A stretch of 64,000 bases of DNA from assembly GCA_031277805.1 (NCBI GenBank), contig JAITLR010000022.1, positions 62,001 to 126,000 on the forward strand, given 5' to 3'. Origin of the DNA: Comamonas sp. (GTDB lineage Bacteria; Pseudomonadota; Gammaproteobacteria; Burkholderiales; Burkholderiaceae_C). This document shows positions 47,084 to 63,336 of the stretch, in pieces. Position 1 is the stretch's first letter. Each line of letters opens with the position of its first letter. The translations under genes and the position numbers were made by a program. The notes below the pieces were generated by a model. It did no database searches, was not told the origin of the DNA, and was given only the letters and a program-made list of their open reading frames with translations.

Positions 47084-47722
47084 ATGGAACACAAGACATC
47101 AGCCCATTACCAGAGATTGCATCGGCAAAGACTGCGTGAGCAGGGGCTGGTGAAAAAGGAAGTCTGGATTCTTCCCGAGCACGGGCCGCTGCTGCAGCGG
47201 CTGGAAAAGCAGATGCGCCTGCCACAGGCGCTGCCGGATTCATTGCTGATCGACCACAAGGAGGGCTCTATGGATAGTGCAAGCCATGCGTATTCGAATA
47301 TTCACAGCTTGGCCGACGACCTGCTGCAAAGCGCGCTGGCGCGCGATGGCAAGCTGCATGTCGAGGTGCTCGAAGGCGCCGATGCCAGCGTGCTGGTGAC
47401 CCTGCCGGAGTTCGGTGACCTGCCGGTTCACCTAGCCCTCTCGGGCGAGCAACTGGTGGTGGAGGCCTTTCTGTGGCCTGCCGACCAGGTCAAGGATCGT
47501 GCAGTCCTGAACGAGCAGATCCTGCGTCTGCAAAAGCTTTTTCCCTCCACGACCATGGCGCTGGAGCCACTGGCCCACGGCGGCGAAGGCTATGTGATGT
47601 TCGCGGCCCTGAAGGCATCGAGCAGCTGCGAGGACATCGTCGGCGAAATCCTCACGTTGTCCGACAGCGTGATCCAGGCCACTGAAGCGCTGCAAGCCCA
47701 TTTGTGGCTGGCACAGGCCTGA
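47084..47722 (+). CDS. DUF2170/YjfI family protein
   Basis: A 212-residue cytoplasmic protein with no membrane segment. Its first ~60 residues (HYQRLHRQRLREQGLVKKEVWILPEHGPLLQRLEKQMR) look like a basic DNA- or protein-binding helix region; the rest is the DUF2170 domain (VTLPEFGDLPVHLALSGEQLVVEAFLWP, GGEGYVMFAALKASSS). The family is exemplified by E. coli YjfI, whose gene precedes the PspA paralogue gene yjfJ. The same order is seen here: the PspA gene starts 46 bases after the stop. Function is unknown; association with PspA-like proteins is the only strong hint. Confidence 0.8.
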   Translation: MEHKTSAHYQRLHRQRLREQGLVKKEVWILPEHGPLLQRLEKQMRLPQALPDSLLIDHKEGSMDSASHAYSNIHSLADDLLQSALARDGKLHVEVLEGADASVLVTLPEFGDLPVHLALSGEQLVVEAFLWPADQVKDRAVLNEQILRLQKLFPSTTMALEPLAHGGEGYVMFAALKASSSCEDIVGEILTLSDSVIQATEALQAHLWLAQA

Positions 47723-47768
47723 AGCGCCAGACCCTTTTCCCCATAACCCACAGCCCCAGGAGAACATC

Positions 47769-48476
47769 ATGGCAGTTTGGAACAAGCTGGTGACAGCACT
47801 GCGCGGTGCGGCCCACGAGGCCGGGGAAGCCGTCACCGACAGCCAGGCGCTGCGCATTCTCGACCAGGAAATTCGCGATTCGGACAATGACCTGAACAAG
47901 TCCCGCGAGGCGCTGGCCGAGATCATGTCCAAGCAAAAGCTTGCGGCCAGCAAGCTGCAGACCACGCAGTCCAAGCTTGCCGAATACGAAGGCTATGCCG
48001 TCAAGGCGCTGGATACCGGCGACGAGGCGCTGGCCCTGGAAGTGGCCGGCAAGGTGGCTCTGCTGGAGGCGCAGCAGAGCGAGGAGCAGGAGCAGCTGCA
48101 GGCTTTCACCCTCAGCGTGGAGCAACTGCGTGCGGCCATACAGACGGCGCAGACCAATATCCGTCGGCTCAAGCAGCAGGCCGACACGGTCAAGGCCACT
48201 GAGAGTGTGCAGCGTGCCCAGGCCACGGTGGCGGGCCGCTACACGGGCTCGCAGTCACGCGTGCAGACGGCGCTGGATTCGCTGGAGCGCATCAAGCAAA
48301 AGCAGGCCGAGCGCGGCGCGCGGCTGCAAAGCGCGGCTGAACTGGCACAGGACGGCGCGGAAGATGCGCTGGATGCCAAGCTCAGGGCAGCGGGCATTGC
48401 CCCCCAGGCCGGTGACGCCAGGACCGTGCTGGAGCGCCTGAAGGCCCAGCGAGCGGGCGGCGACAAGCCGGCTTGA
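47769..48476 (+). CDS. PspA/IM30 family membrane-stress protein (YjfJ-like)
   Basis: A 235-residue, almost entirely alpha-helical coiled-coil protein. It is a phage-shock-protein A/Vipp1 homologue and so belongs to the bacterial ESCRT-III superfamily, whose members form rods and coats on damaged or strained membranes. Residues 1-35 form a predicted amphipathic start (MAVWNKLVTALRGAAHEAGE); long heptad-rich helices continue to about 190 (QQADTVKATESVQRAQATVAG). It has no membrane segment. AGGAG upstream supports the start. It lies between the DUF2170 and YqiJ-like genes in one direction. Confidence 0.88.
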   Translation: MAVWNKLVTALRGAAHEAGEAVTDSQALRILDQEIRDSDNDLNKSREALAEIMSKQKLAASKLQTTQSKLAEYEGYAVKALDTGDEALALEVAGKVALLEAQQSEEQEQLQAFTLSVEQLRAAIQTAQTNIRRLKQQADTVKATESVQRAQATVAGRYTGSQSRVQTALDSLERIKQKQAERGARLQSAAELAQDGAEDALDAKLRAAGIAPQAGDARTVLERLKAQRAGGDKPA

Positions 48477-48558
48477 CGTTGGCCCGAACAGGGCGGGGGC
48501 CACAAGAGGCTGCCAGGGCTTGCCTCGGCCACATCACACCGTACGAAAGGAAAACAAT

Positions 48559-49224
48559 ATGAGTGCTTTCTTGCAGTACGCATTCAGCTTTCCCACCTTT
48601 ATCTTTGGTGCGCTGCTGGCGCTCATGCTGCTGTATTGGCTGGTAGCGTTCGCTGGCCTGGTGGAGACCGACGCGATCGACCACTGGGTGCTGTTCGACG
48701 GCAGCGACCATGCGCATGGCGTCGAGCATTCGGCCAGTGCGCTGGCTGGCTTGCTGCTCAAGGTGGGCTTGGGCGGCATTCCTTTGACAGTGATTCTCAC
48801 GGTGCTGTTTCTGCTGGCGTGGCTGTCGTCCTACCTGCTGTGCCATCTGGTGCCCATGCCGCGGGGCTGGGTCTGGGTGAATGTGCTGACCGGCAGCGTG
48901 GTGGCCGTGGCGGCGCTGGTGCTGGGTTTCGTGGCCACCGTGCTGGTGCTGCGCCCGCTGCGTGGTGTCGTCAACAAGATTGCACCGGATGAAGAGCCCA
49001 AGGTGCTGCTGGGTCGCAGCGGCCTGGTGCGCAGCGCCGTGGTCAATGCCACGCAGGGCTATGGCAGCGTGGACGATGGCGGCGGCGGGCTGAACCTGCA
49101 GCTGCGTTCGCCGGACCGCGAGCTGGAGCGCGGTACCGAGGTGGTGCTGATCGAACACCTGCCCGAGCAGGGAGCCTGGCGCGTCGTCAGCAAGGCCGAG
49201 TTCTACGGCGGCGAGGCGGGGTGA
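48559..49224 (+). CDS. YqiJ-like OB-fold membrane protein
   Basis: A 221-residue inner-membrane protein. Three hydrophobic segments (FPTFIFGALLALMLLYWLVAF, ILTVLFLLAWLSSYLLCHL, VNVLTGSVVAVAALVLGFVATVLVL) precede a soluble C-terminal domain with beta-rich pattern (GRSGLVRSAVVNATQGYGSV, EVVLIEHLPEQGAWRVV), the OB-fold/NfeD-like domain of YqiJ. In E. coli yqiJ sits next to the flotillin gene yqiK, as here, and NfeD-type proteins typically pair with flotillins. The ATG at 48559 has AAGGA upstream; an earlier in-frame codon at 48520 is less likely. Confidence 0.85.
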   Translation: MSAFLQYAFSFPTFIFGALLALMLLYWLVAFAGLVETDAIDHWVLFDGSDHAHGVEHSASALAGLLLKVGLGGIPLTVILTVLFLLAWLSSYLLCHLVPMPRGWVWVNVLTGSVVAVAALVLGFVATVLVLRPLRGVVNKIAPDEEPKVLLGRSGLVRSAVVNATQGYGSVDDGGGGLNLQLRSPDRELERGTEVVLIEHLPEQGAWRVVSKAEFYGGEAG

Positions 49225-49314
49225 CACATTGGGATGACGCATGGCGTGTGCATGGAATGCACGCGCCATGTGGACAGCGTTTTCATGATGATTTATTGAC
49301 TGGGGAGATTCGGT

Positions 49315-51396
49315 ATGGGTTTGGACAATATGGAGTGGTACATCGTTGCCGGGGTGGTGATCGGCTCGATCTTCATCATCATCCTGGGCTTGTTTGCGCT
49401 GATCAAAGCCTTCTACATCAAGGTGCCGCAGGGCACGGCGCTGATCATCAACGACACGACATCCCAGCCCAAGGTCAAGTTCACCGGTGGCCTGGTGCTG
49501 CCCGTGATCCACAAGAAGGAGTTCATGCGCATCTCGCTGATCACGCTGGAGATCGACAGGCGTGGCAAGGAAGGTCTGATCTGCAAGGACAATATGCGCG
49601 CCGACATCACGGTGGCCTTCTACCTGCGCGTCAATGAAACGGCGCAGGATGTGCTGAAGGTGGCCAAGGCCATTGGCGTCGATCGCGCCTCCGACAAGGT
49701 GGCGGTCAACGAGCTGTTCAACGCCAAGTTCTCCGAGGCGCTCAAGACCGTGGGCAAGCAGATCGATTTCGTCAAGCTGTTCGAGAACCGCCAGGATTTC
49801 CGCGACCAGATCATCCATGTGATCGGCAACGACTTGAACGGCTATGTGCTGGAAGACGTGGCCATCGACTATCTGGAGCAGACGCCCAAATCGTCGCTGG
49901 ACCCGAACAACATCCTGGACTCCGAAGGCATTCGCAAGATCACCGAACTGACGGCCAACCAGAACATCGTCACCAACGAGCTGGAGCGCAATGCCGAGCT
50001 GGCCGTGACCAAGAAAAACGTCGAAACCAAGGAAGCCATGCTGGCGCTGGAGCGCCAGCAGGCCGATGCGGAGGCCCGCCAGAAGCGCGAGATCGCCACC
50101 ATTCAGGCACGCGAGCAGGCCGAGACGCAGAAGGTGCAGGAAGAAGAGCGCCTGAAGGCCGAGCAGGCCCGCATCCAGACACAGGAGCAGCTCGACATCC
50201 GCGAGGAAAACCGCCAGCGCGAAGTAGCCGTGGCCCAGCAGAACCGCGAGCGTGCCGTCGTGATCGAGGTCGAGAAGGTCACCCGTGCCCGCGACCTGGA
50301 AGTGGTGGCCCGCCAGCGCGAGGTGGAGCTGCAGCGCATCGAGAAGGAAAAGGCCATCGAAGTGGAGAAGGCCAACATCGCCAATGTGGTGCGCGAGCGC
50401 GTCGCGGTCGAGAAAACCGTGGCGCAGGAAGAAGAGCGCATCAAGGAAGTGCGTGCGGTGTCCGAAGCCGAGCGCATGAAGCAGGTGACGGTGCTGACGG
50501 CCGAGGCCTCGGCCCAGGAGGAGCTGGTGCGCCAGGTCAAGAAGGCCGAGGCCGACGAGACTGCATCGCGCCACAAGGCCGTGGAAGTGACCACCATGGC
50601 CCAGGCCGAACTGGAGGCCGCTGGCAAGACCGCCGAGGCGAAGAAAAAGCTGGCCGAAGCCATCGAGGTGGAGCGCGCCGCGCCGGGCCTGGCCGATGCC
50701 AAGGTACGCGAAGTGACCGCCGCCGCCATCGAGAAGGAAGGCATGGCGCAGGCCAAGGTCATCGCTGAAAAGCTGCTGGCCGAGGCCCGGGGCGAGCAGG
50801 AAAAGGGCCTGGCCGAGGTGCGTGTGATCGAAGCCCAGGCCGATGCCAACGAAAAGCTGGGCCTGGCCGATGCCAAGGTCCTGGAGGAACGTCTGCTGGC
50901 CCAGGCCCGTGGCGAGGCTCAGGTGGGCAACACCAAGGCCGTGGTGACGCGCGATGTGGGCCAATCCGAAGCCGATGTGCTGCGTGACAAGCTGTTTGCC
51001 GAGGCCAAGGGCCTGACCGAGAAATTCTCGGCCCTGGGTTCGCTGTCCGACCAGGCGCGCTCGCACGAAGAGTTCCGCATGCAGCTGGAAAAGAACTTCG
51101 AGCAGGCCCTGGCCGCCATCGAGGCGAACAAGACCGTGGCGCAGGAGCAGGCCGAGGTGCTGTCGGCCGCGTTGTCAAAGGCCAATATCGACATCGTCGG
51201 TGGTGGTGGCGACTTCTTCAACAACTTTGCCAAGGCCTTGTCGGTGGGCAAGGCCGTGGAAGGCGTGTCCGCCAAGAGCCCCATCGTGCAGGAGCTGCTG
51301 GGCAAGTTTCTGGGCGGTGGCAAGTCCCCTGCGGATGCGCTGAGCCAATTGCTGGCCGCCCAGCCCAAGGATCAGGGACCGGGTAACGGCGCTTGA
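49315..51396 (+). CDS. Flotillin family protein (YqiK-like)
   Basis: A 693-residue membrane-anchored flotillin. An N-terminal membrane helix (WYIVAGVVIGSIFIIILGLFALI, ~8-30) is followed by the SPFH/band-7 domain (~35-200, KVPQGTALIINDTTSQPKVKFTG, ADITVAFYLRVNE), then more than 300 residues of Glu/Ala/Lys/Arg-rich coiled coil (QREVAVAQQNRERAVVIEVEKV) and a C-terminal oligomerisation region. It should form cytoplasmic-face assemblies that organise membrane microdomains. A good ribosome site (GGGGAG) supports the start. It is fourth in the locus, after the YqiJ-like gene, and the linkage of these two is conserved in E. coli. Confidence 0.9.
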   Translation: MGLDNMEWYIVAGVVIGSIFIIILGLFALIKAFYIKVPQGTALIINDTTSQPKVKFTGGLVLPVIHKKEFMRISLITLEIDRRGKEGLICKDNMRADITVAFYLRVNETAQDVLKVAKAIGVDRASDKVAVNELFNAKFSEALKTVGKQIDFVKLFENRQDFRDQIIHVIGNDLNGYVLEDVAIDYLEQTPKSSLDPNNILDSEGIRKITELTANQNIVTNELERNAELAVTKKNVETKEAMLALERQQADAEARQKREIATIQAREQAETQKVQEEERLKAEQARIQTQEQLDIREENRQREVAVAQQNRERAVVIEVEKVTRARDLEVVARQREVELQRIEKEKAIEVEKANIANVVRERVAVEKTVAQEEERIKEVRAVSEAERMKQVTVLTAEASAQEELVRQVKKAEADETASRHKAVEVTTMAQAELEAAGKTAEAKKKLAEAIEVERAAPGLADAKVREVTAAAIEKEGMAQAKVIAEKLLAEARGEQEKGLAEVRVIEAQADANEKLGLADAKVLEERLLAQARGEAQVGNTKAVVTRDVGQSEADVLRDKLFAEAKGLTEKFSALGSLSDQARSHEEFRMQLEKNFEQALAAIEANKTVAQEQAEVLSAALSKANIDIVGGGGDFFNNFAKALSVGKAVEGVSAKSPIVQELLGKFLGGGKSPADALSQLLAAQPKDQGPGNGA

Positions 51397-51429
51397 GAGA
51401 CCGGAAAACCGGAGAGCCGGGAATAGCAC

Positions 51430-51506
51430 GACTTGCGCAAACCAGATTCAGGCAGGAGCTGCGCCACAAGGCAGCAGTTCTTGGCACATCCTTGTTGGCG
51501 CAAGTC
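51430..51506. repeat. GACTTGCGCA inverted repeat (family C), copy 2
   Basis: Ends GACTTGCGCA and GGCGCAAGTC are complementary at nine of ten positions; ACATCCTTGTTGGCGCAAGTCC matches the inner part of the copy at 19799-19864. It fills much of the 209-base gap after the flotillin gene. Confidence 0.68.
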
Positions 51507-51605
51507 CTCATAAAATTTCCGGCTCTTGCCGCCCTGGCCTGCGTATCCGCACCACGCCATCGGGCGGCCGTTGTTCCCAGTCTGGGACACATCAAGGAGT
51601 TCCCT

Positions 51606-52604
51606 GTGCATTCGACTACCCATAGCCGCCGCGCCTTCATCGCCACGGCCGCTGCCGCATCCCTTCCTCTAGTCTTTACCAACTCGGCCCGCGCGGCCAC
51701 CCAGGAGCTCAAGCTCGGCTACCCGCTGCCGCAGAATTCGCAATTCGGTGCCGCAGCGCGCGCCTTCGGCCAGGAACTGGCTCGGCTCACCGACAACCGT
51801 TTCACGGTCAAGGAGTTTCCGTCGAGCACGCTGGGCGGCGAGCGCGAGATGATCGAGGGCCTGCAACTGGGCAGCCAGGAGCTGGCCATTGTCTCCACCG
51901 GGGCCGTGGGCAACTTCGTGCCCCAGGTCACGATCTTCGACCTGCCCTTTCTGTTCCGTGACTACGCGCATGCCCATGCCGTGCTGGACGGCGCCATCGG
52001 CGCCGAGATGCTGCAGCGTTTTCCCGCGCGCGGCCTGACCGCGCTGGCCTGGGGCGAAGGGGGCTTTCGCCACATCACCAATTACAAGCGGCCCATAGTT
52101 CGGCCCGAAGACCTGCGCGGACTCAAGATCCGCACGCAGGAGAACGCCATGCACATCGCTGCGTTCAAGGGCCTGGGAGCCAGCCCCACACCCATCAACT
52201 GGCCAGAGACCTTCATGGCGCTGCAGCAGCGCACCGTGGACGGCCAGGACAACCCGATCTCGGTGATCGAGGCTTCCAAGCTCTACGAGGTGCAGAAATA
52301 CCTGTCGCTCACCCAGCACCTGTATTCGCCCGCCTTGTTCCTGGCCTCGCCCGCGCTGCTGGGCCGGCTTTCCAAGGCCGACCAGGAGGCTTTCCGCAGC
52401 GCGGCGCGTGCCGGTGCTGCCGCCATGCGCCAGCGCGTCGCGCAGGACGAGCGCTCGGGTGTCAAGAACCTGCGCCAGCACGGCATGGAGGTGGTCGAGC
52501 AGATCGACAAATCCCTTTTCGTGGCCGCACTTGCAGGCAGCTACAAGGATTTCAACCAGAGGTTCGGTGCCGACAACATCGAACGCATCCGACAAGTGAA
52601 GTGA
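51606..52604 (+). CDS. TRAP transporter substrate-binding protein (DctP), orphan
   Basis: A 332-residue periplasmic binding protein of the DctP family. The N-terminus has a twin-arginine (Tat) type signal (SRRAFIATAAAASLPL). Family blocks include ELKLGYPLPQNSQFGAAARAFGQEL, STLGGEREMIEGLQLGSQELAI and KIRTQENAMHIAAFKGLGASPTPINWPETFMALQQRTVDGQDNP, the last being a DctP signature. The GTG start has AAGGAG six bases upstream. The membrane subunits DctQ and DctM are absent from this window, so it is an orphan or works with subunits elsewhere. The next gene starts eight bases after the stop, so they are co-transcribed. Confidence 0.9.
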   Translation: MHSTTHSRRAFIATAAAASLPLVFTNSARAATQELKLGYPLPQNSQFGAAARAFGQELARLTDNRFTVKEFPSSTLGGEREMIEGLQLGSQELAIVSTGAVGNFVPQVTIFDLPFLFRDYAHAHAVLDGAIGAEMLQRFPARGLTALAWGEGGFRHITNYKRPIVRPEDLRGLKIRTQENAMHIAAFKGLGASPTPINWPETFMALQQRTVDGQDNPISVIEASKLYEVQKYLSLTQHLYSPALFLASPALLGRLSKADQEAFRSAARAGAAAMRQRVAQDERSGVKNLRQHGMEVVEQIDKSLFVAALAGSYKDFNQRFGADNIERIRQVK

Positions 52605-52612
52605 AGCCATCC

Positions 52613-53626
52613 ATGCGCTATTCCATCTTTTCCGTCCAGGACCATCACCCCGCGTTGCACCGTTCGGTGGCGCAGCTCTATGAGCAGGTCATAGATGAGG
52701 CCAAGCTTGCCGAGTCGCTGGGCTATGACACTTTCTTCGTGGCCGAGCACCATTTCCACGAATGCGGCTCGGTGCCCAACCCGGCCGTGTTTCTCTCCGC
52801 ACTGGCGCGCGAGACACAAAAAATCCGACTGGGCGTGGCCGTCTCCAACATCACCATCCACAATCCGCTGACCATCGCCGAGGACTACACGATGGTGGAC
52901 ATGCTCTCGGGTGGGCGCCTGACACTGGGCGTGGGATCGGGCTATCTGCGCCACGAGTTCGAAGGCCACCGCATCAGCCCCGAGGAAAAGCGTGAACGCT
53001 TCGACGAAAACCTGCAGGTCATGGTGCAGGCGCTGACCGGCGAGCCCGTCCATTTCCAGGGCAAGTACAACGATCTGCCCGGCGTGGCACTGAACGTGCA
53101 GCCCGTGCAACCGGGCGGCCTGCCCATCCACGTCGCCATCCAGCGCCGCGAGGCGGCCTATCACGTGGGACGCCAGGGCCGCAACATCTTCTCTCTGCCG
53201 TATTCCTGCCTGACCAAGGCCGAGGAGATCCGCGGCCTGATCGAAGACTATCGCCGGGGCTATGGCGAATCGGGCGCGCCGGGCCGGGGCGAGGCCGTAC
53301 TGGCCTTCCACTGCCATGTGGCAGAGAGCGACGCGCAGGCCAAGATCAATGCCGAGCAAGCCTTCAACCTCTACCTGGACACACGCCTGTTCTATGACAC
53401 ACGCCGGACCTACGACACCGTGGTCGGCGGCGGCCTGGGCATGTTCGGCTCGCCCGAGACCGTGGCCCGTCAGCTCGTGGACCTGCACGACATGGGCATA
53501 GACCATGTCATGTTCCTGCAGAACTTCGGTGTGCTCGACTCGGCCTTGGTACGCGACTCCATGCACCGTATTGCCAACGAGGTGATGCCGCTGGTACGTC
53601 AGCGCATTGGCGCGCCGCAGGCGTAG
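52613..53626 (+). CDS. LLM-class flavin-dependent oxidoreductase
   Basis: A 337-residue luciferase-like monooxygenase with a TIM-barrel fold, likely using FMN/FMNH2. The N-terminal region SIFSVQDHHPALHRSVAQLYEQ and the block FFVAEHHFHECG are typical; LTLGVGSGYLRHEFEGH and DLHDMGIDHVMFLQNFG follow. Without a partner reductase gene, the substrate cannot be assigned. A GTG start at 52601 would overlap the DctP stop and is possible. The pairing with a DctP gene suggests uptake and oxidation of one small organic compound, such as a sulfonate or aromatic acid, but that is inference. Confidence 0.85.
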   Translation: MRYSIFSVQDHHPALHRSVAQLYEQVIDEAKLAESLGYDTFFVAEHHFHECGSVPNPAVFLSALARETQKIRLGVAVSNITIHNPLTIAEDYTMVDMLSGGRLTLGVGSGYLRHEFEGHRISPEEKRERFDENLQVMVQALTGEPVHFQGKYNDLPGVALNVQPVQPGGLPIHVAIQRREAAYHVGRQGRNIFSLPYSCLTKAEEIRGLIEDYRRGYGESGAPGRGEAVLAFHCHVAESDAQAKINAEQAFNLYLDTRLFYDTRRTYDTVVGGGLGMFGSPETVARQLVDLHDMGIDHVMFLQNFGVLDSALVRDSMHRIANEVMPLVRQRIGAPQA

Positions 53627-53725
53627 TGAGCTTTCAGGCCAAACCATGCAGGCGCATGGGCCTGTGCATGAGCGGGAGCCGATTTCATCGGAATCCTGCT
53701 CGCCAGGCAACCGCTGGGTTGGTAT

Positions 53726-53782
53726 GAATTTGATAGCTTCTGGCGCCTTCTGCATACGCGCTAGAGCCTTTTTTCTTGAAAT
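53726..53782. repeat. Dispersed family A repeat directly before the AAA-ATPase start codon
   Basis: TTTGATAGCTTCTGGCGCC, then a loop, then GCGCTAGAGCCTTTTTTC. This resembles a small hairpin followed by a six-T run, i.e. a terminator-like form, ending about 12 bases before the ATG at 53786. Confidence 0.65.
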
Positions 53783-53785
53783 GAT

Positions 53786-56700
53786 ATGACCTCTACTCCC
53801 GCGCAAGACTCCGCAGCAGCCCAGCAGACCATAGACAACGCGGTCGCCAGCGGCGGCTCGTATGAAGTTCTGGCCAAGCGGCTCGATGCCCAGGGTCAGG
53901 CGCTGGAAGCCCTGGCGCGCCAGCTCAACGAAGAGCGGCTGGAGGAGTTCGGCCGCAGTCAGATGGAAGTTGTCGGCCGCATGCGTGTGCGCACCGAGAA
54001 CAATTGCCTGGGTCGCGACATCGCCCAGGTCGGTGGCTATCTGCTGTTTGGCTACAACGTCTTCATGGGCCTGAAGCGGGAGACGCGCGTCGAGGACGTG
54101 TTTGCGCTGTACCGCCTGCACGAGGGCGAGCAGGGCTACGAGGTCACGCCGGTGGACCTCAAGGAGAGCTTTCTCGGCATACAGAGCTTTGTGCAGGATT
54201 TCCAGGAGCTCTACGCCTACTACAAGAACACCAAGCTGATGCAGCTGGCCGTGCGCGATGGCAAGCTGCTGGTCAGCTTTCAGATCGGCGAGCGCCTGAC
54301 CGATGTGCGTGTGTTCCGCTGGCAGGTAGCGCCCGATGGCCAGCAGATCCGCTATATCGACAACCGTGGCGAGCGCGACATCGAGCTGCCTGCCCCCCAT
54401 GACTTCGAATGGCAGCGCGCGGGCCGCGAGCAACTGGTGCAGGGGCGCTACCCGCACCTCAACATTCTGGACAAGGTGTTTGTCGAGACGCTGGGCGGCG
54501 ATCTGACCATCAAGGTGGAGAACAACACCAACGACGGCCTGGGCATCTACCGTGAGCCCGTGCAGGAACAGAACCAGTCGCTGGACGATGCGGTGTTCGA
54601 ATACGCGGCCGTGGGCAGCCTGATCCTGCTCAAGATCCTGCCCTACCGCGAGGAGCAGTGGCGCTATCTGGTCTACAACACCTTGTCGCAACAGGTGCTG
54701 CGCATGGACTCCATCGGCTCGGCCTGCATACAGCTGCCCGATGACCACGGCATCATCTTCCCCGGCGGCTATTACCTGCAAAGCGGCGAGCACCGCTCGT
54801 TCGAGCAGAACATGCAGGGCATGCGCTATCGGCGCAGCATCCGCTCGCCCAATGGCGAGGATGTGCTCTACATCTTCTACGAGCCCGAAAGCGGCCGCAT
54901 GGCGCTGTTCAAGTACAACCTTATCGAGCGTGCGCTGCAGCCGCCGCTGGTGGGTCATGGCTATGCGCGGCTGGAGGATGGGCGCATCGTCATCTTCGCG
55001 GCCGAGAGCAACGAGGCCTCGCGCGTACACCCCATGCAGGTCTGGCATACGCCGTTCGCCTCGGAAGACTATGCGGCGCGCCAGCCGCAGAAGGACAGCT
55101 TCCTGGGCCGCATCGGCAATGCCGAGCTGGTCAGCGGTATCTCCGACTTCTTCAGCGTGCGCAAGGAAATCGCCGCGACCGAGGTTTCACTGCCCCGCTA
55201 CGAGCGGCTGATAGACAGCACGCGCCGCCTGTTCGAGCGCTACCACTGGCTGGGCACGCCCACGCTCAAGGCGCTCAACGAAGCGCTGCTGGGCATCGTC
55301 GCCACGGGCGATGCGGTGATCGACGAGTACGAGAAGGTCGAGAGCATCCGCCAGGCCTCGGCGCGTGCCATGGCCGAGGTCTCGGGCCGGCACCAGGTCC
55401 TGCTCAAGCAGCTGCGCAGCTCGGACTGGGAGACGGTGGACGAGCATGTACAGGCGCTGAGCCAGCTGGGTCAGCTGCGCGGTCAGCTGATGTCCACGCG
55501 CGAGTTGCGCTATGTGGATCAGGCCGCCATCGACGCCATGATCGCGGCCGTCAACGAACACCAGGCCGATGTCTCGCAACAGACGGCAGCCTTTATCGCT
55601 ACCGAAGCGGCCCTGCAGCCCTATGTGCAGCAATTGCAGGAGCTGGACCAGGCTGCGCAGGCGGCCACCACGGTGGCGCAGATCGGCGAGCCCATGCAGA
55701 AGATGGCGGACATGGCCGGCGCGCTGGACATGCTCTCCGAGTTGATGAGCAGCCTGCAGATCGCAGATGCCACGCAGCGCACGCAGGTGGTGGACCGCAT
55801 CTCGACCATCTACGCGCGGCTCAACCAGGTGCGTGCACGCGCCCAGCAGCGCAAAAGCACGCTGGGCAGTGCGGAGAATGTGGCCCAGTTCGCCGCGCAA
55901 CTGGCCTTGTTCTCGCAAAGCATCGTCAGCGCGCTGAACCTGGCGCAGACGCCCGAGCGCTGCGACGAGCAACTGGCGCGCCTGCTGGTGCAGCTGGAGG
56001 AAATCGAAGGCCAGTTCGGCGAGCACGAGCAGTTCCTGGGCGACATCGTCGCCAAGCGCGAGGAAGTGCTGGAGACCTTCGAGGCCCACCGGCAGGCGCA
56101 GCAGGATGAGCGCCAGCGCCGCGCCCAGGGCGTGCTGGATGCCGCGCTGCGCATCGTGCAAAGCCTGCCCAAGCGCACGGAAAAGCTGGCTAGCCCCGAT
56201 GCCCTGCATGCCTTCTTCGCGGGCGATCCGCTGATCGCCAAGCTCAAGGAACTGGCGCAGCGCCTGCGCGACGAGCTGCACGATCCCGTCAAGGCCGACG
56301 ATATCGACAGCCGCATCAAGACGCTGCGCGACCAGGCCTTCCGCGCGCTGCAGGATCGTACCGACCTCTACGAAGGTGATGGCAACGTGATCCGGCTGGG
56401 GCGCCACCGCTTCTCCGTGGGCAATCAGGCACTGGAGCTGACTTTGCTGCCTCGTGGCAGGGAATTGTTCCTGCATATCGTGGGCACCGAGTATTTCGAG
56501 CCTGTGAACAACGCCGAGCTGGTGGGCCTGCAGGGCTACTGGGATGCGGCCACGCCGGCCGAGTCGCCCAGCCTCTACCGTGGCGAATACCTGGCGCTGC
56601 AAGTGGTGCAGGCCATGCGCGCGGGCCGCGATGGCTGGAGCCAGAACCGCCTGCGCCAGCTGCTGCCCGATGCCGAGGCGCTGACCCAGGCGATACGCGA

Positions 56701-59389
56701 ATTCGCCGCACCGCGCTACCGCGAAGGCTACGAGCGCGGCATTCACGACCATGATGCAGCCCTGATCCTGCAGGCCCTGGTGCCGCTGGCCGATGCGGCC
56801 GGAGTGCTGCGCCATGCACCCCATGCGCGCAGCCTGGCGGCCCTGTTCTGGAGCCGCAGGGACCGCATACAGCAGCCCCGGCTGGCAGCGGCCATTGCAC
56901 TGTGGCCCGAAAGAGCGCAGCAGGCCCTGGCCATGCAGCAGATGTTTGCCAGCGACGCGCAAAAAAGCCAGTTGCAGGTCGATATGGCCGCGCAGCTGCT
57001 GGTCTTTGCCAGGGAGGAAGAGCTGCTGGATGATTTGCTGGCCAGCGACCCGACTCGTGATGGCACCGGCGTCGATGCGGACGGCGCAGATTCCGAACAG
57101 TCCGCCGAGATTGCCGGCCTGGTGAATGCTGCGGCCGACTACCTGCTGGCCGAGCTGGCGCAGAAGGCCTTGCGTTTCCACGCCTCGGGTGCCAGCCAGA
57201 TGCTGGTGGCCACGCTGCAGACAGCAATGAAGGCCGGCAGCCAGGAGGGTGGGCTGCGCTGGGAAGAACTGCAGGCCTACTGGAGCACACATGGCAGCAC
57301 CAGGGCCGCAGGCCGTGGCAGCGAAGGGGCGCCCCTGGTCGAGCGCTGGCGCAGTGCACTGCACTGGGTGCAGACCGCCTGCAGTGCGCAGGCCGGGGAC
57401 GAGGCGGCCTCGCTTCAGGCATATTGCAGCGAAGCCGCGACCTGGCTGGTCTGCGCCAATGCCCTGCCCAGTGCGGTGAGCAATGTGGACTTGCAGGTAC
57501 AGATTCCAGGCCTGCTGGGCCAGCATGCGCGCATCGTCGACGGCCAGATGCATTTGCAGCTCGATCAGCTGGGCACGCGTGCGGCGCGCCACTACCGGCT
57601 ATTTGTGCCGCAGTGGGAGCGCTATCAGCAGCTGCGCCAGCAGGTGCTGCAGGACTACCGTGGGCGCATACGACTGGAGGAATTCAAGGCGCGGCCCCTG
57701 TCCTCGTTCGTGCGCAACAAGCTCATCAACGAAAGCTACCTGCCCGTCATAGGCGACAACCTGGCCAAGCAGATGGGCGCACAGGGCGAGGCCCGCCGCA
57801 CCGACCAGATGGGCCTGCTGATGATGATTTCGCCGCCCGGCTACGGCAAGACCACGCTGATGGAATATGTGGCCAGTCGCCTGGGCCTGATCTTCATGAA
57901 GATCAACGGCCCGGCGCTGGGCCATTCCGTGCGCTCGCTGGACCCGGCGCAGGCGCCCGATGCCACGGCGGCCAAGGAACTGGAGAAGCTCAACCTGGCG
58001 CTGGAGATGGCCAACAACGTGATGCTGTACGTGGACGACATACAGCACACGCACCCCGAGTTTCTGCAGAAGTTCATCTCGCTGTCCGATGGCACGCGCC
58101 GCATCGAAGGCGTGTGGCAGGGCCAGACCAAGACCTACGACATGCGCGGCAAGCGCTTTTGCGTGGTCATGTCGGGCAACCCGTACACCGAATCGGGCGA
58201 GGTCTTCAAGATCCCCGACATGCTGGCCAACCGTGCCGATATCTACAACCTCGGCGATGTGCTGGGCGGCATGGAGGAGGTGTTCAAGCTCAGCTACATC
58301 GAAAACAGCATGACCAGCAATGCCGTGCTCGCACCCATGGCCACGCGCAGCCTGCAGGACCTGTACCTGCTGCTGGACAAGGCGCAGGGCAAGGAAGTCT
58401 CGGCCAATGCGCTCAGCCACGACTATTCGTCGGCCGAGCTGCGCGAGATCGAAGCCGTGCTCCAGCGCATGCTGCAGGTGCGTGAAGTGGTGTTCCGCAT
58501 CAACCAGCAATACATTCTGAGCGCCGCCCAGGACGACAACTACCGCGCCGAGCCCGCGTTCAGGCTGCAGGGCAGCTACCGCAATATGAACAAGCTGGCC
58601 GAGAAGATCACGCCGGTGATGAATGACCAGGAAATGCAGCAGATGCTCGACGACCACTATCAGGGCGAAGCGCAGATGCTGACCACGGGCGCGGAGGAAA
58701 ACCTGCTCAAGCTCAAGCAACTGCGCGGCCATGCCAGTGCGCAGGAAGGCGCACGCTGGGAGGAAATCCGCGCCCAGTTCCTGCGCCACAAGGCTGCCGG
58801 TGGCGCCAATGCCGATGCCGGCACACGCGTGGCCACGCAGCTGGTCGATCTGGTGGCCGCCACGCGCGAGATGGCGCATGGCATGGCCGATGCCGGCCAG
58901 CAGCAGGCCGAACAGCAGGCCCGGTGGCGCGATGCGGACCAGGGGCGCGATGCGGCCCAGCGCGAGGGCTGGCAGGCGCTGCTGGCGCAGCTGCAGCAAG
59001 CGCAGAGCGCGACCGACCATTCCCTGCAAGGCATACGCGAGGCGCTGGCCCAGGCCACTCAGGCGCGGCAGGCCGAGATGGAGGCACAAGCCCAGGCTGC
59101 TGCCCGCGAGGACGCCCATGGCCGTGAGACCGACCCGCAAAACGGCATGGCCGCGCTGCTGGGCCAGGTGGTGGCGCACTCGCTGCAGCCAGTGGTCGAG
59201 CATCTGGAGCAAAGCCGCAGCCAGCAACTGGGGCTGCACCGCGTGCTCATGCAGGTGGCCACGCGCATGCAGGAGCAGATCGACAGCCAGCGCGCACAGC
59301 TGCAGCGCGCCAGCGCCCAGCCCACGCTGCACGCCGGCGAGATAGACCGAGCCTTCGACCGCATGCAGGAGGGGCGGCAATCGAGGTAG
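53786..59389 (+). CDS. Giant AAA+ ATPase of the flotillin/PspA locus (named 'DNA repair ATPase' in relatives)
   Basis: An 1867-residue cytoplasmic protein. Residues ~1-470 are a beta-containing N-terminal part; ~470-900 are mostly helical and coiled-coil; ~900-1320 mixed. A MoxR-like AAA+ core follows: Walker A PPGYGKTT at 1350-1357, Walker B YVDDIQ with D1417-D1418, sensor-1 asparagine N1465 in VMSGNPYTESG, and arginine-rich helices after that. The last ~250 residues are Gln/Ala-rich coiled coil. Relatives carry the name DNA repair ATPase, for which I see no evidence here. Its place after PspA and flotillin and before a mechanosensitive channel suggests a membrane-associated remodeller. The start has no ribosome site and a repeat sits directly upstream. 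Confidence 0.82.
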   Translation: MTSTPAQDSAAAQQTIDNAVASGGSYEVLAKRLDAQGQALEALARQLNEERLEEFGRSQMEVVGRMRVRTENNCLGRDIAQVGGYLLFGYNVFMGLKRETRVEDVFALYRLHEGEQGYEVTPVDLKESFLGIQSFVQDFQELYAYYKNTKLMQLAVRDGKLLVSFQIGERLTDVRVFRWQVAPDGQQIRYIDNRGERDIELPAPHDFEWQRAGREQLVQGRYPHLNILDKVFVETLGGDLTIKVENNTNDGLGIYREPVQEQNQSLDDAVFEYAAVGSLILLKILPYREEQWRYLVYNTLSQQVLRMDSIGSACIQLPDDHGIIFPGGYYLQSGEHRSFEQNMQGMRYRRSIRSPNGEDVLYIFYEPESGRMALFKYNLIERALQPPLVGHGYARLEDGRIVIFAAESNEASRVHPMQVWHTPFASEDYAARQPQKDSFLGRIGNAELVSGISDFFSVRKEIAATEVSLPRYERLIDSTRRLFERYHWLGTPTLKALNEALLGIVATGDAVIDEYEKVESIRQASARAMAEVSGRHQVLLKQLRSSDWETVDEHVQALSQLGQLRGQLMSTRELRYVDQAAIDAMIAAVNEHQADVSQQTAAFIATEAALQPYVQQLQELDQAAQAATTVAQIGEPMQKMADMAGALDMLSELMSSLQIADATQRTQVVDRISTIYARLNQVRARAQQRKSTLGSAENVAQFAAQLALFSQSIVSALNLAQTPERCDEQLARLLVQLEEIEGQFGEHEQFLGDIVAKREEVLETFEAHRQAQQDERQRRAQGVLDAALRIVQSLPKRTEKLASPDALHAFFAGDPLIAKLKELAQRLRDELHDPVKADDIDSRIKTLRDQAFRALQDRTDLYEGDGNVIRLGRHRFSVGNQALELTLLPRGRELFLHIVGTEYFEPVNNAELVGLQGYWDAATPAESPSLYRGEYLALQVVQAMRAGRDGWSQNRLRQLLPDAEALTQAIREFAAPRYREGYERGIHDHDAALILQALVPLADAAGVLRHAPHARSLAALFWSRRDRIQQPRLAAAIALWPERAQQALAMQQMFASDAQKSQLQVDMAAQLLVFAREEELLDDLLASDPTRDGTGVDADGADSEQSAEIAGLVNAAADYLLAELAQKALRFHASGASQMLVATLQTAMKAGSQEGGLRWEELQAYWSTHGSTRAAGRGSEGAPLVERWRSALHWVQTACSAQAGDEAASLQAYCSEAATWLVCANALPSAVSNVDLQVQIPGLLGQHARIVDGQMHLQLDQLGTRAARHYRLFVPQWERYQQLRQQVLQDYRGRIRLEEFKARPLSSFVRNKLINESYLPVIGDNLAKQMGAQGEARRTDQMGLLMMISPPGYGKTTLMEYVASRLGLIFMKINGPALGHSVRSLDPAQAPDATAAKELEKLNLALEMANNVMLYVDDIQHTHPEFLQKFISLSDGTRRIEGVWQGQTKTYDMRGKRFCVVMSGNPYTESGEVFKIPDMLANRADIYNLGDVLGGMEEVFKLSYIENSMTSNAVLAPMATRSLQDLYLLLDKAQGKEVSANALSHDYSSAELREIEAVLQRMLQVREVVFRINQQYILSAAQDDNYRAEPAFRLQGSYRNMNKLAEKITPVMNDQEMQQMLDDHYQGEAQMLTTGAEENLLKLKQLRGHASAQEGARWEEIRAQFLRHKAAGGANADAGTRVATQLVDLVAATREMAHGMADAGQQQAEQQARWRDADQGRDAAQREGWQALLAQLQQAQSATDHSLQGIREALAQATQARQAEMEAQAQAAAREDAHGRETDPQNGMAALLGQVVAHSLQPVVEHLEQSRSQQLGLHRVLMQVATRMQEQIDSQRAQLQRASAQPTLHAGEIDRAFDRMQEGRQSR

Positions 59390-59465
59390 TGCATATGGGG
59401 CCGGGCCGCCGAGGTGGATGCTCCAAGATGGCCACCCGGGCCTGACTTGCATCAGTCGTTGCATA

Positions 59466-59560
59466 TTTCATAGCTGCCAGCGCTTGCTGTAAGCCAGTTT
59501 TGTATATGAAAGTATCAAGAACTGTTTGTCATCAAGCGCCAGAAGCTCTTGAATACATAG
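59466..59560. repeat. Dispersed family A repeat pair upstream of the channel gene
   Basis: TCATAGCTGCCAGCGCTTG near the left end and, reversed, CAAGCGCCAGAAGCTCTTGA near the right end form an imperfect inverted pair. Confidence 0.6.
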
Positions 59561-59601
59561 CGAAAAGCATCTGGCATCCGGCATGCCGATACACTGCGCC
59601 G

Positions 59602-62600
59602 ATGCGTGTATTCCCTCTGCCCACTCCTGCCGTTTCCGCTTTGTCGCGCAGCACCATATATCGGCTCTGGCTGCTGTATGTGCTGTTGGCGCTGTGGGTG
59701 GTTGTGGGCGGCGTGGCCCAGGCGGCTCCGGCCTCCGCATTGCCAGGGCCTCTGGGCAGTCTGAGCGCTGGCTCGGGCAGCAGCTCGGCTGCGGATGAGG
59801 AGCAGCGCGCGCTCCAGGCCCAGCGGGAAGCTACCGACACCGCCAATCAGGAAGCCGATGCCCTGGCCCAGTCACTGGACCGTTTGCGCGCCAAGGCGCA
59901 GGCCCCGGCACAGACCTTGCCCGCGCCGCTAGGCGACGCGGAGCTGGCCGGGCTTCTGGCGCGCTGGCAGGAGCGCATTCCCGCCAACGCCAGCCAGGAA
60001 GTGCTGGAGCGTCTGCTGGCCGACGAACGTGATGCCATCGCCGCGCTCAAGGCCGGTATCGATAAATCCGCTGCCGAGCAGGCCAATCTGGTGACGCAGA
60101 CCGGTCCGGCGCGGGCCGACCTGTCCACGCTGCAGCAGCGCGTGCAGGACAGCGCCGAGCCCGTGACTGCCGAGCCCGGCGAGCTGCCTGCGCTGACTCA
60201 GGCGCGCCAGCTGCGGCGCAATGCCGAGCACCGCCGCGCCATGCTGGAGCTGGCCTTGCGCCAGGAGGAGCAGTCCACCATCGAAACCCGTCAGCGCCTG
60301 CTGGATGCCCAGTTGCAGGCCCAGCGCCGCGAATTGCTGGAGCGCACGCCGCGCGTGGCCTGGCTGAACCAGCGCATCGCCGAGCGCGGTCGCCAGCAAC
60401 TGGAGCAGCAGGCACGCGAAGCGCGCGCGGCGGAGGACGCCGTCACCAGCGCCTCTCCCGCGATCCGCGAACTGGCGCAGCAGAACGCGGCCCTGGCGGA
60501 TCAGATCCTGGAGCACACCAACCGCCTGGCGCAGGAGCGCATGGAGCTGGCCAGCGATGAATACCGCCAGGGCCAATTGGCGGCCGCACTGCGCGACACC
60601 CAGGCTCGCCTGCGCCTGGGCGGCGGCGCGGCCGTGGGTCAGTGGCTGTGGCAGCAGCGGGTGGCGCTGCCCACGGCAAACACCGTTCAGGCGCGGCGCA
60701 AAACAGCGCAGCGGCAGCTGGCCGAGCTGCGCCTGGCGTTGTTCAATGCCAGCGAACGACGCTTCAGCCTCAACAGCGCGGCAGGCCCCCTGGATGGCGT
60801 GGGCACGGAGACCAGCGCCGAAGCTGCAGCCCGGCGTACGGCGCTATGGGGCCGACAGGCAGCGCTGATCGATCAGCTGCAGCCGCTGCTGCTGCGGCGC
60901 ATCGCCGTGCTGGAGCAGACCGAGGCTGCGCTGCAGGCCACGCAGCGCAGCGGCAGCGAGCTGCGGCAGGTGATGGACAAGGAGCTGCTGTGGTTCCCCA
61001 GCCATCGGGCCATGGACGGTTCCTGGCTGCGCGAATGGCGCACCGTGGCGCAAAGTGCAGGCGGTGATGAGCCAGGGCAGGCCTTCAGCGCTTCCCCGCG
61101 GAACACGGCCCGTGCGCTTGGAACCAGCCTGCTGGCCAACGCCTGGGCCTATCTGGCCATTGGCGCGGGCGTGCTGCTGCTGCTGGGGCTGCGGCGCCAC
61201 GCCTTGCGCAAGCTCGATGCCATAGCGCTGTGCGTGGGCGATTTTTCGCGCGACCATTTCGGGCTGAGTCTGGCCGCGTTGGGCTGGAGCCTGCTGTACG
61301 CGCTGCCCTGGAGCTTTGCCACCGCCGCGCTGGGCGGCCTGCTGCAATCCACCAGCACGCCTGCGGCGCTGGAGCCGCTGGGCCTGACGCTGGAGCAGCT
61401 CAGCAGCTTCATCTTCGTGGCCACGCTGCTGCAGGCGCTGTTCCGTCCAGGCGGGTTGGCGCTGGCCCATTTCGGCTGGCCTCTGGAGCGCGTGCAGACG
61501 CAGCGCCGCATGCTGCGCCAGGCTACCTGGCTGATCGTGCCCGCCGAGCTGCTGGGCGGTCTGGCCTTCTTCAGCCATGACGACCTGGCCATCAGCACCT
61601 GGGGGCGCTTGTGCATTCTGACGCTGGTGCTGGGCCTGGCGTGGGTGTCGGGGCGCTACTTTCACGACAGCCTGCGCAAGAAGGGCCTGAGCTGGCACTG
61701 GGGGCTGATCGTGAGTGCGGCGCTGGTGCTGCTGTTGCTGGGCCTGGCCGTGGGTATCGCGCTGGGCTATGTCTATACGGCCACCGAAGTCATCCAGGCG
61801 CTGCTCAGCGGTTTCGTGTTCCTGGCCTGGGTCGAGGTGCTGATCGGCCTGCTGAGGCGCTGGTTGCTGCTGGGCGAGCGCCGTCTGGCGCTGAACCGGC
61901 TGCGTGCCGCCGCCCTTGCGCAAGCCGCCGCCATGGCCCAGGCTGATGGCCAGGCGGACGCAGGCAAGCCTCCCGTGGACGAGGAACGCCAGATGGCCCT
62001 GGTCACGGTGAGCGCGCAGACGCATCGCCTGCTGGGTCTGCTGCAGCGGATACTGGTCGTGCTGAGCCAGATCTATGTCTGGTCGCCGGTGCTGCCCGCG
62101 CTGCTGCGCTTCAACGGCGTGGTGCTCTGGTATACGACCAACACGGGGGCTGACGGCATCGGCCATCCCGCCCCCGTGAGCCTGATGGATGTGCTGCTCA
62201 CCGTGCTGCTGCTGCTGCTGACCGTCAGCCTGACGCGTAACCTGCCGGGCCTGATGGAAGTGGTGCTGTCGGCGTCGCTGCGTATCAGCAATTCGGCGCG
62301 CTACACGGCCACCACACTGGCACGCTATGTCGTCGTCATTGCGGGCGCCATCACCGCGCTTTCGCTGCTGGGGCTGCGCTGGGGCCAGCTGCAATGGCTG
62401 GCCGCAGCGCTGACCGTGGGCCTGGGCTTTGGCTTGCAGGAGATCTTCGCCAACTTCGTCTCGGGACTGATCCTGCTGGTGGAGCGACCCTTCCGCGTGG
62501 GCGACGTCATCACCATAGACCGGCTGGATGGCACCGTCACACGTATCCGCACGCGTGCCACCACGGTGCTGGATTTCGACAACAAGGAAATCGTCATTCC

Positions 62601-63000
62601 CAACAAGACCTTCATCACCGGGCAGGTGACGAACTGGACCCTGAGCGACGATGTGACGCGTTTGGTCATCGAGGTGGGCGTGGCCCACGGCAGCGATTCC
62701 GCGCGGGTGCGCGAGCTGCTGCTGGCCATTGCCGGCGAACACCCCCAGGTGCTGCGCGAGCCTGAGCCCAATTGCTGGTTCATGGCCCTGGAGGGGCAGG
62801 GCCAGAAGTTCGAGCTGCGAGCCTATGTGGGCGCCGTGGCGGACCGGCTGCCGGTGCGCAACGATTTGAACCGCAGCATCCGGGAGCGGCTGGCCGCCGA
62901 GGGCATTGCCGTGGCCTTCCCGCAGATGGGCGTTCATGTGCGGGAGCTGCCGGGGCAGCCGTGGTCACACGAACCAGCCTCGAATACAGGTAGCAGATAA
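59602..63000 (+). CDS. MscK-like mechanosensitive channel
   Basis: A 1132-residue inner-membrane protein, close to the ~1120 of E. coli MscK (KefA). A signal-type N-terminus (YRLWLLYVLLALWVVVGG, ending at AQA) leads to a periplasmic coiled-coil domain of about 480 residues (QAQRRELLERTPRVAWLNQRI). About ten membrane helices follow, ending in the MscS-like pore: RWGQLQWLAAALTVGLGFGLQEIFANFVSGLILL, then the beta domain GTVTRIRTRATTVLDFDNKEIVIPNK and a C-terminal alpha/beta region. It should open in response to membrane tension. The ATG at 59602 was chosen over a frame start at 59500. Its co-location with PspA and flotillin genes is notable. Confidence 0.92.
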   Translation: MRVFPLPTPAVSALSRSTIYRLWLLYVLLALWVVVGGVAQAAPASALPGPLGSLSAGSGSSSAADEEQRALQAQREATDTANQEADALAQSLDRLRAKAQAPAQTLPAPLGDAELAGLLARWQERIPANASQEVLERLLADERDAIAALKAGIDKSAAEQANLVTQTGPARADLSTLQQRVQDSAEPVTAEPGELPALTQARQLRRNAEHRRAMLELALRQEEQSTIETRQRLLDAQLQAQRRELLERTPRVAWLNQRIAERGRQQLEQQAREARAAEDAVTSASPAIRELAQQNAALADQILEHTNRLAQERMELASDEYRQGQLAAALRDTQARLRLGGGAAVGQWLWQQRVALPTANTVQARRKTAQRQLAELRLALFNASERRFSLNSAAGPLDGVGTETSAEAAARRTALWGRQAALIDQLQPLLLRRIAVLEQTEAALQATQRSGSELRQVMDKELLWFPSHRAMDGSWLREWRTVAQSAGGDEPGQAFSASPRNTARALGTSLLANAWAYLAIGAGVLLLLGLRRHALRKLDAIALCVGDFSRDHFGLSLAALGWSLLYALPWSFATAALGGLLQSTSTPAALEPLGLTLEQLSSFIFVATLLQALFRPGGLALAHFGWPLERVQTQRRMLRQATWLIVPAELLGGLAFFSHDDLAISTWGRLCILTLVLGLAWVSGRYFHDSLRKKGLSWHWGLIVSAALVLLLLGLAVGIALGYVYTATEVIQALLSGFVFLAWVEVLIGLLRRWLLLGERRLALNRLRAAALAQAAAMAQADGQADAGKPPVDEERQMALVTVSAQTHRLLGLLQRILVVLSQIYVWSPVLPALLRFNGVVLWYTTNTGADGIGHPAPVSLMDVLLTVLLLLLTVSLTRNLPGLMEVVLSASLRISNSARYTATTLARYVVVIAGAITALSLLGLRWGQLQWLAAALTVGLGFGLQEIFANFVSGLILLVERPFRVGDVITIDRLDGTVTRIRTRATTVLDFDNKEIVIPNKTFITGQVTNWTLSDDVTRLVIEVGVAHGSDSARVRELLLAIAGEHPQVLREPEPNCWFMALEGQGQKFELRAYVGAVADRLPVRNDLNRSIRERLAAEGIAVAFPQMGVHVRELPGQPWSHEPASNTGSR

Positions 63001-63004
63001 ATTT

Positions 63005-63050
63005 ATCGGATTTGATAGCTGATGGCGACGAGAGGACGGGCGCTGGCGGC
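63005..63050. repeat. Dispersed family A repeat
   Basis: ATTTGATAGCTGATGGCGACG, then GGACGGGCGCTGGCGGCTG, a diverged copy between the channel gene and the metH leader. Confidence 0.55.
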
Positions 63051-63174
63051 TGTTTTCATGCTTGCTCAATAGATGGCAAGCCGTGGCGCGCACCTGATGC
63101 CTCGCTCGATGCCTGTACGGCTATGGCGGCTGGCCTGCAAAGCGTGGCACTAGCGCTTAAAATCCGAGGTTCCG

Positions 63175-63297: not shown

Positions 63298-63336
63298 TGT
63301 TCTCGATTCTGTCTGGTTTGTATACAGGTGAGCCCC

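What the first reader, a model, noticed from the sequence alone, without database searches (positions are those of the whole stretch)
47084..63000. Candidate membrane-remodelling locus: DUF2170, PspA, YqiJ, flotillin, giant AAA+ ATPase and MscK-like channel
Six proteins that each concern the inner membrane or its stress are encoded in one direction: a PspA/IM30 protein (ESCRT-III superfamily), a YqiJ OB-fold membrane protein, a flotillin, an 1867-residue AAA+ protein, a tension-gated channel and a DUF2170 protein. PspA-DUF2170 and YqiJ-YqiK pairs are known in E. coli, but the addition of the giant ATPase and MscK-like channel suggests a larger module. By analogy with ESCRT-III and Vps4, the AAA+ protein might disassemble or recycle PspA or flotillin polymers. 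That mechanism is inference; the gene order is seen directly.
Basis: partly seen in the sequence, partly recalled or inferred. Interest (0 to 1): 0.85.

Follow-up and report, generated by a model that had tools for sequence, protein, structure and literature searches.

The report
PspA–flotillin–AAA+ stress operon with operator
This is a Comamonas copy of an already described bacterial membrane-stress operon (the bac or PspA–flotillin–AAA+ type); the ion channel beside it looks like a mere neighbour, and a conserved DNA palindrome suggests that the operon's first protein switches its own genes off.

Summary
The six genes are real, but two were missed: a TRAP solute-binding protein and a luciferase-like oxidoreductase lie between flotillin and the ATPase, an insertion seen only in this genome. 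The core DUF2170–PspA–NfeD/YqiJ-like–flotillin–AAA+ is a published operon type (Ravi et al. 2024; P. aeruginosa bac operon). In named loci with enough flank, NfeD-like plus flotillin precede the ATPase in 71 of 71, DUF2170–PspA in 45 of 69; the MscK-like channel follows in 1 of 68. In the genus it is adjacent in 8 genomes and apart in 5; two genomes without the ATPase show an empty site with mscK in place. The AAA+ fold resembles MoxR/NorQ/CbbQ more than Vps4. New here: the DUF2170 protein has a conserved N-terminal module of about 60 residues (weakly MazE-like), and a palindrome, ATYACATGTRAT, precedes its gene in 48 of 51 loci with the module, 0 of 18 without, and 1 of 1987 control windows; short-form loci carry another palindrome (18 of 19). 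I propose that BacA is an autorepressor whose chaperone domain reads PspA. DNA binding was not tested.

The parts
47054..47065 (.). Perfect palindrome ATCACATGTGAT, candidate operator, starting 30 bp before the DUF2170 start codon
   Evidence: Only exact ATYACATGTRAT site in the 4.16-Mb assembly; site upstream in 48 of 51 module-bearing loci, 0 of 18 short-form loci, 1 of 1987 control windows
47042..47053 (.). Possible second, degenerate copy of the operator (TTACATGTATGC)
   Evidence: Seen in sequence; 23 of the 51 module-bearing loci have two sites, 18 of them 21-24 bp apart
47084..47722 (+). BacA/YjfI-like protein: N-terminal module (residues about 1-60), then DUF2170/CesT-like domain (72-207)
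   Evidence: Pfam DUF2170 6.6e-43; NCBIfam BacA 241 bits, below its cut-off of 300; PDB 8q8o matches 72-207 only; N-module weakly MazE-like, PF11455 E 0.13
47769..48476 (+). PspA/IM30 family protein (BacB-like); the only PspA found in this 86%-complete assembly
   Evidence: Pfam PF04012 1.7e-46; own-genome search with this protein
48559..49224 (+). NfeD/YqiJ-like membrane protein (BacC-like)
   Evidence: hhalign to E. coli YqiJ E 7e-7; no Pfam hit at E 0.01
49315..51396 (+). Flotillin/SPFH protein of the YqiK kind (BacD-like)
   Evidence: BLASTP 2e-39 and hhalign 3.3e-33 to E. coli YqiK
51606..52604 (+). Insertion, part 1: DctP-type TRAP solute-binding protein; not part of the operon type
   Evidence: Pfam 3.4e-81; absent from the closest relative
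52601..53626 (+). Insertion, part 2: luciferase-like monooxygenase; not part of the operon type
   Evidence: Pfam 5.7e-57; the two-gene stretch lies elsewhere in 3 of the other 52 genus genomes at 82-84%
53786..59389 (+). Giant ATPase: WD40-like beta-propeller (DUF3686, residues about 60-422), long helices (445-860), AAA+ domain of MoxR-like fold (about 1290-1650)
   Evidence: Pfam; models m1aad4b63d12c and m366dc9e0effc; structural matches
59602..63000 (+). MscK-like mechanosensitive channel, neighbour with its own conserved upstream block
   Evidence: NCBIfam MscK 8.8e-178

Best explanation
The locus is a Comamonas copy of the known bac-type envelope-stress operon (DUF2170–PspA–NfeD/YqiJ-like–flotillin–AAA+), here split by a two-gene insertion and lying next to a resident mscK. 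Shown by sequence: gene content, conserved linkage, empty site, operator-like palindrome. Inferred: BacA is a two-part autorepressor. Its N-terminal module binds ATYACATGTRAT and holds the operon off. Its CesT-like domain binds PspA and so couples repression to how much PspA is free or on damaged membrane. NfeD-like protein and flotillin build a membrane platform to which PspA is recruited. The ATPase docks through its propeller and helices and uses a MoxR-type ring to remodel that platform rather than to strip ESCRT-III-like PspA filaments as Vps4 would.
Against: Module-bearing and short-form loci are also two operon lineages and many of the 51 are close relatives, so the operator–module tie is partly phylogenetic. 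The MazE-like match is below Pfam's cut-off (E 0.05-0.13) and a profile search of the PDB gave no RHH protein. Of three separate small proteins of short-form loci scanned, one had a weak FitA-like RHH hit (E 0.21); the other two had unrelated weak hits, the best E 0.005. In the genus 7 of 18 exact palindromes lie away from any DUF2170 gene; one match with up to one mismatch in 64 kb is not rare by itself (21 of 100 shuffles). Four of 13 loci of the divergent group lack the site. By sequence the ATPase's best Pfam AAA hit is the general AAA family and its best PDB hits, at the Walker A region only, are p97-like proteins and RuvB. The direction of the PspA effect on BacA is a guess.
Confidence: 0.5

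Rival explanations
1. One reading: the AAA+ protein is a Vps4-like recycler of PspA (or flotillin) polymers, with the tension-gated channel as part of the same module.
For: PspA is an ESCRT-III relative (established; family hit); Ravi et al. also suggest ESCRT-like ATP-dependent remodelling; AAA+ active-site residues are invariant in 79 of 79 aligned sequences; best sequence hits to solved AAA+ proteins are p97-like, at the Walker A region.
Against: The model has a beta-hairpin just before the sensor-1 strand and its ten best structural matches are MoxR proteins; DUF2170–PspA is not linked on the same strand in 24 of 69 loci (in 2 of these it is divergent); the channel is not conserved.
Confidence: 0.2
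2. The channel is a clade-specific functional member in Comamonas: the operon gained a tension sensor.
For: Adjacent, same strand, in 8 of 15 ATPase-bearing genus genomes, 2 changes on the ATPase tree against a shuffled mean of 6.5, a single origin not ruled out; operon and mscK stay together although their flanks are arranged differently in the window and G432.
Against: mscK sits at the same site without the ATPase operon in G429 and G430; both kinds share the block CCGATACACTGYGCCGATG that ends at its ATG, which suggests its own promoter; 5 genomes keep both genes apart.
Confidence: 0.15
3. The palindrome is the site of another regulator; the BacA N-module does something else, such as binding a protein partner.
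For: No confident fold for the N-module; 7 of 18 exact genus sites are elsewhere.
Against: Presence follows the module in two divergent groups of DUF2170 genes and is missing in the two loci where the module is decayed or absent; a different palindrome goes with the short form.
Confidence: 0.3
4. A sigma-54, PspF-like control as in the classical psp system.
For: A sigma-54 site is proposed upstream of P. aeruginosa bacA.
Against: No match of 10 of 12 or better to the sigma-54 consensus (GG and G kept) in about 400 bp upstream in 71 loci, none known to be P. aeruginosa; shuffled copies gave 1.25 on average. Consensus matching can miss weak sites.
Confidence: 0.1

Closest known systems
CesT/Tir(DUF2170)–PspA–flotillin–AAA+ operon of Ravi et al. 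2024 (PMC11237479, passages seen)
   Same: All five protein kinds, including the AAA+ ATPase with beta-propeller and coiled coil; PLD gene in some relatives
   Different: Here a TRAP-binding protein and a monooxygenase are inserted before the ATPase and mscK follows; the paper's main text has no occurrence of mechanosensitive, MscS, MscK, rhomboid, palindrom or operator
Pseudomonas aeruginosa bacABCDEF operon (PMC2587700, PMC10948618, PMC13086221; passages, and section 3.6 of the second)
   Same: DUF2170 (BacA), PspA (BacB), short NfeD (BacC), SPFH protein PaFlo3 (BacD) in this order
   Different: Crystallised BacA lacks the N-module; which of bacE and bacF is the ATPase was not checked by sequence here; PA3728 is listed as 'ATPase' in another paper (PMC8190622, passage)
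E. coli yqiJ–yqiK
   Same: NfeD/YqiJ-like plus flotillin pair
   Different: No PspA, DUF2170 or ATPase within the 12 kb looked at
B. subtilis PspA with YdjG, YdjH and the SPFH protein YdjI
   Same: SPFH protein working with PspA (PMC8581546, abstract)
   Different: Other membrane partners; no giant ATPase named in the abstract
MoxR-class AAA+ (NorQ, CbbQ)
   Different: Fused to a propeller and helical part of about 1290 residues; no VWA partner was noticed among the recurrent neighbours, not specifically searched

Membership tests
bac-type / CesT–PspA–flotillin–AAA+ operon | DUF2170 gene followed by PspA | tested here: met
bac-type / CesT–PspA–flotillin–AAA+ operon | SPFH/flotillin protein with coiled coil, preceded by a YqiJ/YuaF/NfeD-like membrane protein | tested here: met
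   Flotillin by YqiK similarity; YqiJ-like by profile comparison only
bac-type / CesT–PspA–flotillin–AAA+ operon | AAA+ ATPase with N-terminal beta-propeller and coiled coil | tested here: met
bac-type / CesT–PspA–flotillin–AAA+ operon | Genes adjacent and co-transcribed | tested here: inconclusive
   Same strand and adjacent except for the two-gene insertion; transcripts not testable
Vps4-type classical AAA | N-terminal MIT domain | tested here: not met
   No MIT hit at E up to 10 in Pfam; N-part is DUF3686/propeller
Vps4-type classical AAA | No beta-hairpin before sensor 1 (recalled criterion) | tested here: not met
   Strands at model residues 740-745 and 748-753 before the sensor-1 strand 759-763 (protein residues 1439-1452 and 1458-1462)
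MoxR-class AAA+ | Presensor-1 beta-hairpin (recalled criterion) and MoxR-like fold | tested here: met
MoxR-class AAA+ | Helix-2 insert and VWA-domain partner (recalled criteria) | tested here: inconclusive
   No strands in the helix-2 region of the model; VWA partner not specifically searched
Classical Psp response (PspF, sigma-54) | Sigma-54 promoter upstream | tested here: inconclusive
   0 of 71 upstream regions reach 10 of 12; a consensus scan can miss sites
MazE-like / ribbon-helix-helix regulator (BacA N-module) | Significant match to the family | tested here: inconclusive
   PF11455 was the one Pfam hit in 3 of 3 N-modules scanned, E 0.048-0.13, below cut-off; no RHH in PDB profile search
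Known anti-phage defence systems | Hit over most of a PADLOC model | tested here: not met
   PspA alone had hits (best LmuB E 8.3e-5 over about 150 of 1007 positions, coiled-coil-like); none for the other five proteins

The most novel reading that the evidence does not exclude
DUF2170 proteins with the N-module are one-component, PspA-reading autorepressors: a DNA-binding module fused to a CesT-like chaperone domain that takes the place of PspF. In the short-form operons the same job is split between a short DUF2170 protein and a separate small protein with its own operator (GACATNNNATGTC). The operator–module pairing thus defines a second, sigma-54-independent way in which bacteria couple PspA state to gene expression.
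Probability: 0.4. Interest if true: 0.68.

Novelty: new member of a known kind. Interest (0 to 1): 0.5.

Why it matters
PspA is the bacterial ESCRT-III relative, and how PspA systems outside the enterobacteria sense stress and are controlled is open. The locus itself is known in kind, but the palindrome gives a cheap, decisive test of whether BacA is a DNA-binding repressor, which would explain why removing BacA raises the other Bac proteins. It also turns the ATPase question from PspA (Vps4-like) to the flotillin/NfeD platform (MoxR-like), and takes the channel out of the conserved module.

Tried and rejected
Sigma-54 control: two scans gave no excess; not supported for these loci. Sigma-70-like promoter and terminator scans were uninformative (1 promoter-like site, 2.6 expected; 14 terminator-like, 12.4 expected). 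Channel as a conserved module member: rejected; the clade-specific case is kept as a rival. Defence-system reading: no support. Extra exact palindromes in the genus were checked for nearby DUF2170 genes: none at 7 of 7. A first classification of loci failed because its motif was too strict; one search replaces it, and drops loci with identical upstream DNA and L098 (too little upstream DNA). In one search, 7 of 51 module-bearing loci also match GACATNNNATGTC with at most one mismatch; in 6 of the 7 the match is a GACATCACATGT stretch that overlaps the other palindrome, in the seventh (L053) it is a separate place. Vps4 and its kin are not among the 50 rows; this absence proves nothing.
Full report
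1. What is there. The window is part of a 4.16-Mb assembly, 86% complete, in 31 contigs. The flotillin and YqiJ-like assignments rest on comparison with E. coli YqiK and YqiJ, because Pfam gives no fitting family at E 0.01 for 22 and 23 aligned members. The channel probably starts at 59602.

2. Conserved linkage. NfeD-like and flotillin genes are upstream of the ATPase in 30; L064 is the exception. Both DUF2170 and PspA are found in 22; L035 is cut at its edge. The two sets overlap. The ATPase also occurs in 12 records of a plasmid collection, some of chromosome size, from Proteus, Deinococcus, Streptomyces and others.

3. The channel is a neighbour. In the genus, MscK was found at E up to 1e-100 in 16 of 53 genomes and the ATPase in 15; 13 have both; adjacent in 8, apart in 5 (in G462 the MscK match is partial); 3 have MscK only. 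G429 and G430 have no ATPase match; there an enoyl-CoA hydratase gene is followed after about 240 bp by mscK, and in G442, G431, G427, G435, G452 and G433 the operon lies between these same two genes. The block CCGATACACTGYGCCGATG ends at the mscK start codon in the 8 linked genomes and in G429 and G430. Against a purely accidental neighbourhood: in the window and its sister G432 the operon and mscK stay together although the LysR and gltS genes lie on the other side, and adjacency is clustered on the ATPase tree (2 changes, shuffled mean 6.5).

4. The insertion. Window 44001-64000 and G432 are collinear at 90-94%, except for window 51337-53839 against about 240 bp in G432 and smaller breaks in the ATPase–mscK gap. 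The dctP–monooxygenase stretch occurs elsewhere in G454, G446 and G447 (82-84%), so it is a gene pair of the genus that came to lie inside the operon of this genome. None of the other 31 unnamed loci has it at this place. Since the assembly is a draft, a misassembly is not excluded.

6. BacA's extra module and the operator. DUF2170 covers residues 72-207. Before it lies a strongly conserved module (consensus KSSAHYQRLxRQRLREQGLVKKEVWILPE; 13 invariant columns in 26 sequences), absent from short-form loci. The crystallised P. aeruginosa chain (8q8o, 146 residues) aligns only after it. Pfam's one hit for three of three N-modules is MazE-like PF11455, E 0.048-0.13, not significant. Reading the upstream DNA showed a palindrome. 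With at most one mismatch to ATYACATGTRAT in 200 bp: 48 of 51 module-bearing loci (misses L073, L085, L090), 0 of 18 short-form loci, 1 of 1987 random windows of the same loci, 6 of 1987 shuffled upstream regions. Fourteen of the 51 are the window and its genus. Sites lie mostly near -30, near -52 or at both; 23 loci have two. In the window the site is perfect, at 47054-47065, and is the only exact one in the assembly; a match within one mismatch somewhere in 64 kb is not rare in itself (21 of 100 shuffles). Genus-wide there are 18 exact sites in 14 of 53 genomes, 11 of them before bacA; the reversed control pattern gives 2; the other 7 have no DUF2170 gene within about 2 kb.

7. Second test. 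I used the 30 loci that one search returned (97 of 199 genomes of G308's genus, probably Pseudomonas, had a match), with exact ATYACATGTRAT or TCACATGTGA in 200 bp. Bac-type: 14 of 16; the misses are L174 (module present) and L177 (module missing). L176, grouped with the others by identity but with a decayed module, has none. Of the 13 remaining, more divergent DUF2170 loci (46-51% identical to the query, module present; their neighbourhoods were not examined; G881 and G883 hold one copy of each group), 9 have a site such as CTCACATGTGAG; L185, L186, L189 and L190 do not. Control 0 of 519. Short-form operons instead carry GACATNNNATGTC in 18 of 19 loci (control 4 of 1987). In 11 of the 80 named loci there is a separate protein of about 107 residues, in 10 on the operon strand and in L144 with the divergent pair; of three scanned, one has a weak RHH hit (E 0.21), two have unrelated weak hits.

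8. Mechanism. Published: loss of bacA raises BacB-BacD and the products of PA14_16190 and PA14_16200 by 6.1- to 13.5-fold and the six genes are co-transcribed (the 2008 paper had called the cluster monocistronic); PA3731 rises on osmotic shock (PMC2587700, passage); the flotillin mutant has only a slight biofilm defect (PMC13086221, passage). Putting these together I infer repression by BacA at the palindrome and coupling to PspA through the CesT-like domain. Ravi et al. note a separate RHH gene at the end of another PspA operon group; their main text has no hit for operator or palindrom. I found no report of the BacA N-module or of the palindrome in the listings of searches or by term search in PMC10948618; most subscription papers are not covered.

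9. Verdict. A known kind of operon in another host, with an overextended reading of the channel and a plausible, testable new regulatory feature.

Noticed in passing
window 51427-51513: A dispersed repeat of about 80 bp at the left edge of the dctP–monooxygenase insertion: similar copies (73-86%) lie at 4 other places listed for this genome and in many genus relatives; a similar ACTTGCGCAAAC stretch is in the ATPase–mscK gap of G432. It may have helped the insertion.
   Followed up: no
L075, L076, L084, L092, L094, L102, L106, L107, L139 and others, directly after the ATPase gene: A rhomboid-type protease gene (Pfam 4.3e-18 for L075, the one member scanned) forms a cluster in 15 of 80 loci, in 14 right after the ATPase gene on the same strand; 'rhomboid' does not occur in Ravi's main text. 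A PLD-like gene forms a cluster in up to 20 of 80 (one member scanned; at least one looks like a wrong reading frame).
   Followed up: partly
L076:9527-9802, L081, L106, L107 (between flotillin and ATPase), L127 (after the ATPase): A small acidic protein of about 80-115 residues with weak EF-hand-like hits, possibly TerB-like (recalled), in 5 loci.
   Followed up: no
L122:9413-9958, L124, L134, L136 and others: A zinc-ribbon (TFIIB-type) protein between flotillin and ATPase in 4 loci and near the ATPase in others, 9 of 80 loci in all.
   Followed up: no
window 59570-59602 and relatives: A promoter -10-like hexamer (TACACT, TATATT; judged by eye) 6-7 bp before the mscK start codon in several genomes suggests a very short or absent leader.
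   Followed up: partly
L042 (G126): The ATPase gene is split by a stop codon in this genome.
   Followed up: no
plasmid record NC_009444.1, 92416-97305: A 425-kb record listed under Pseudomonas fluorescens SBW25 carries the ATPase, annotated 'DNA repair ATPase'; nothing that I saw supports a DNA repair role.
   Followed up: no
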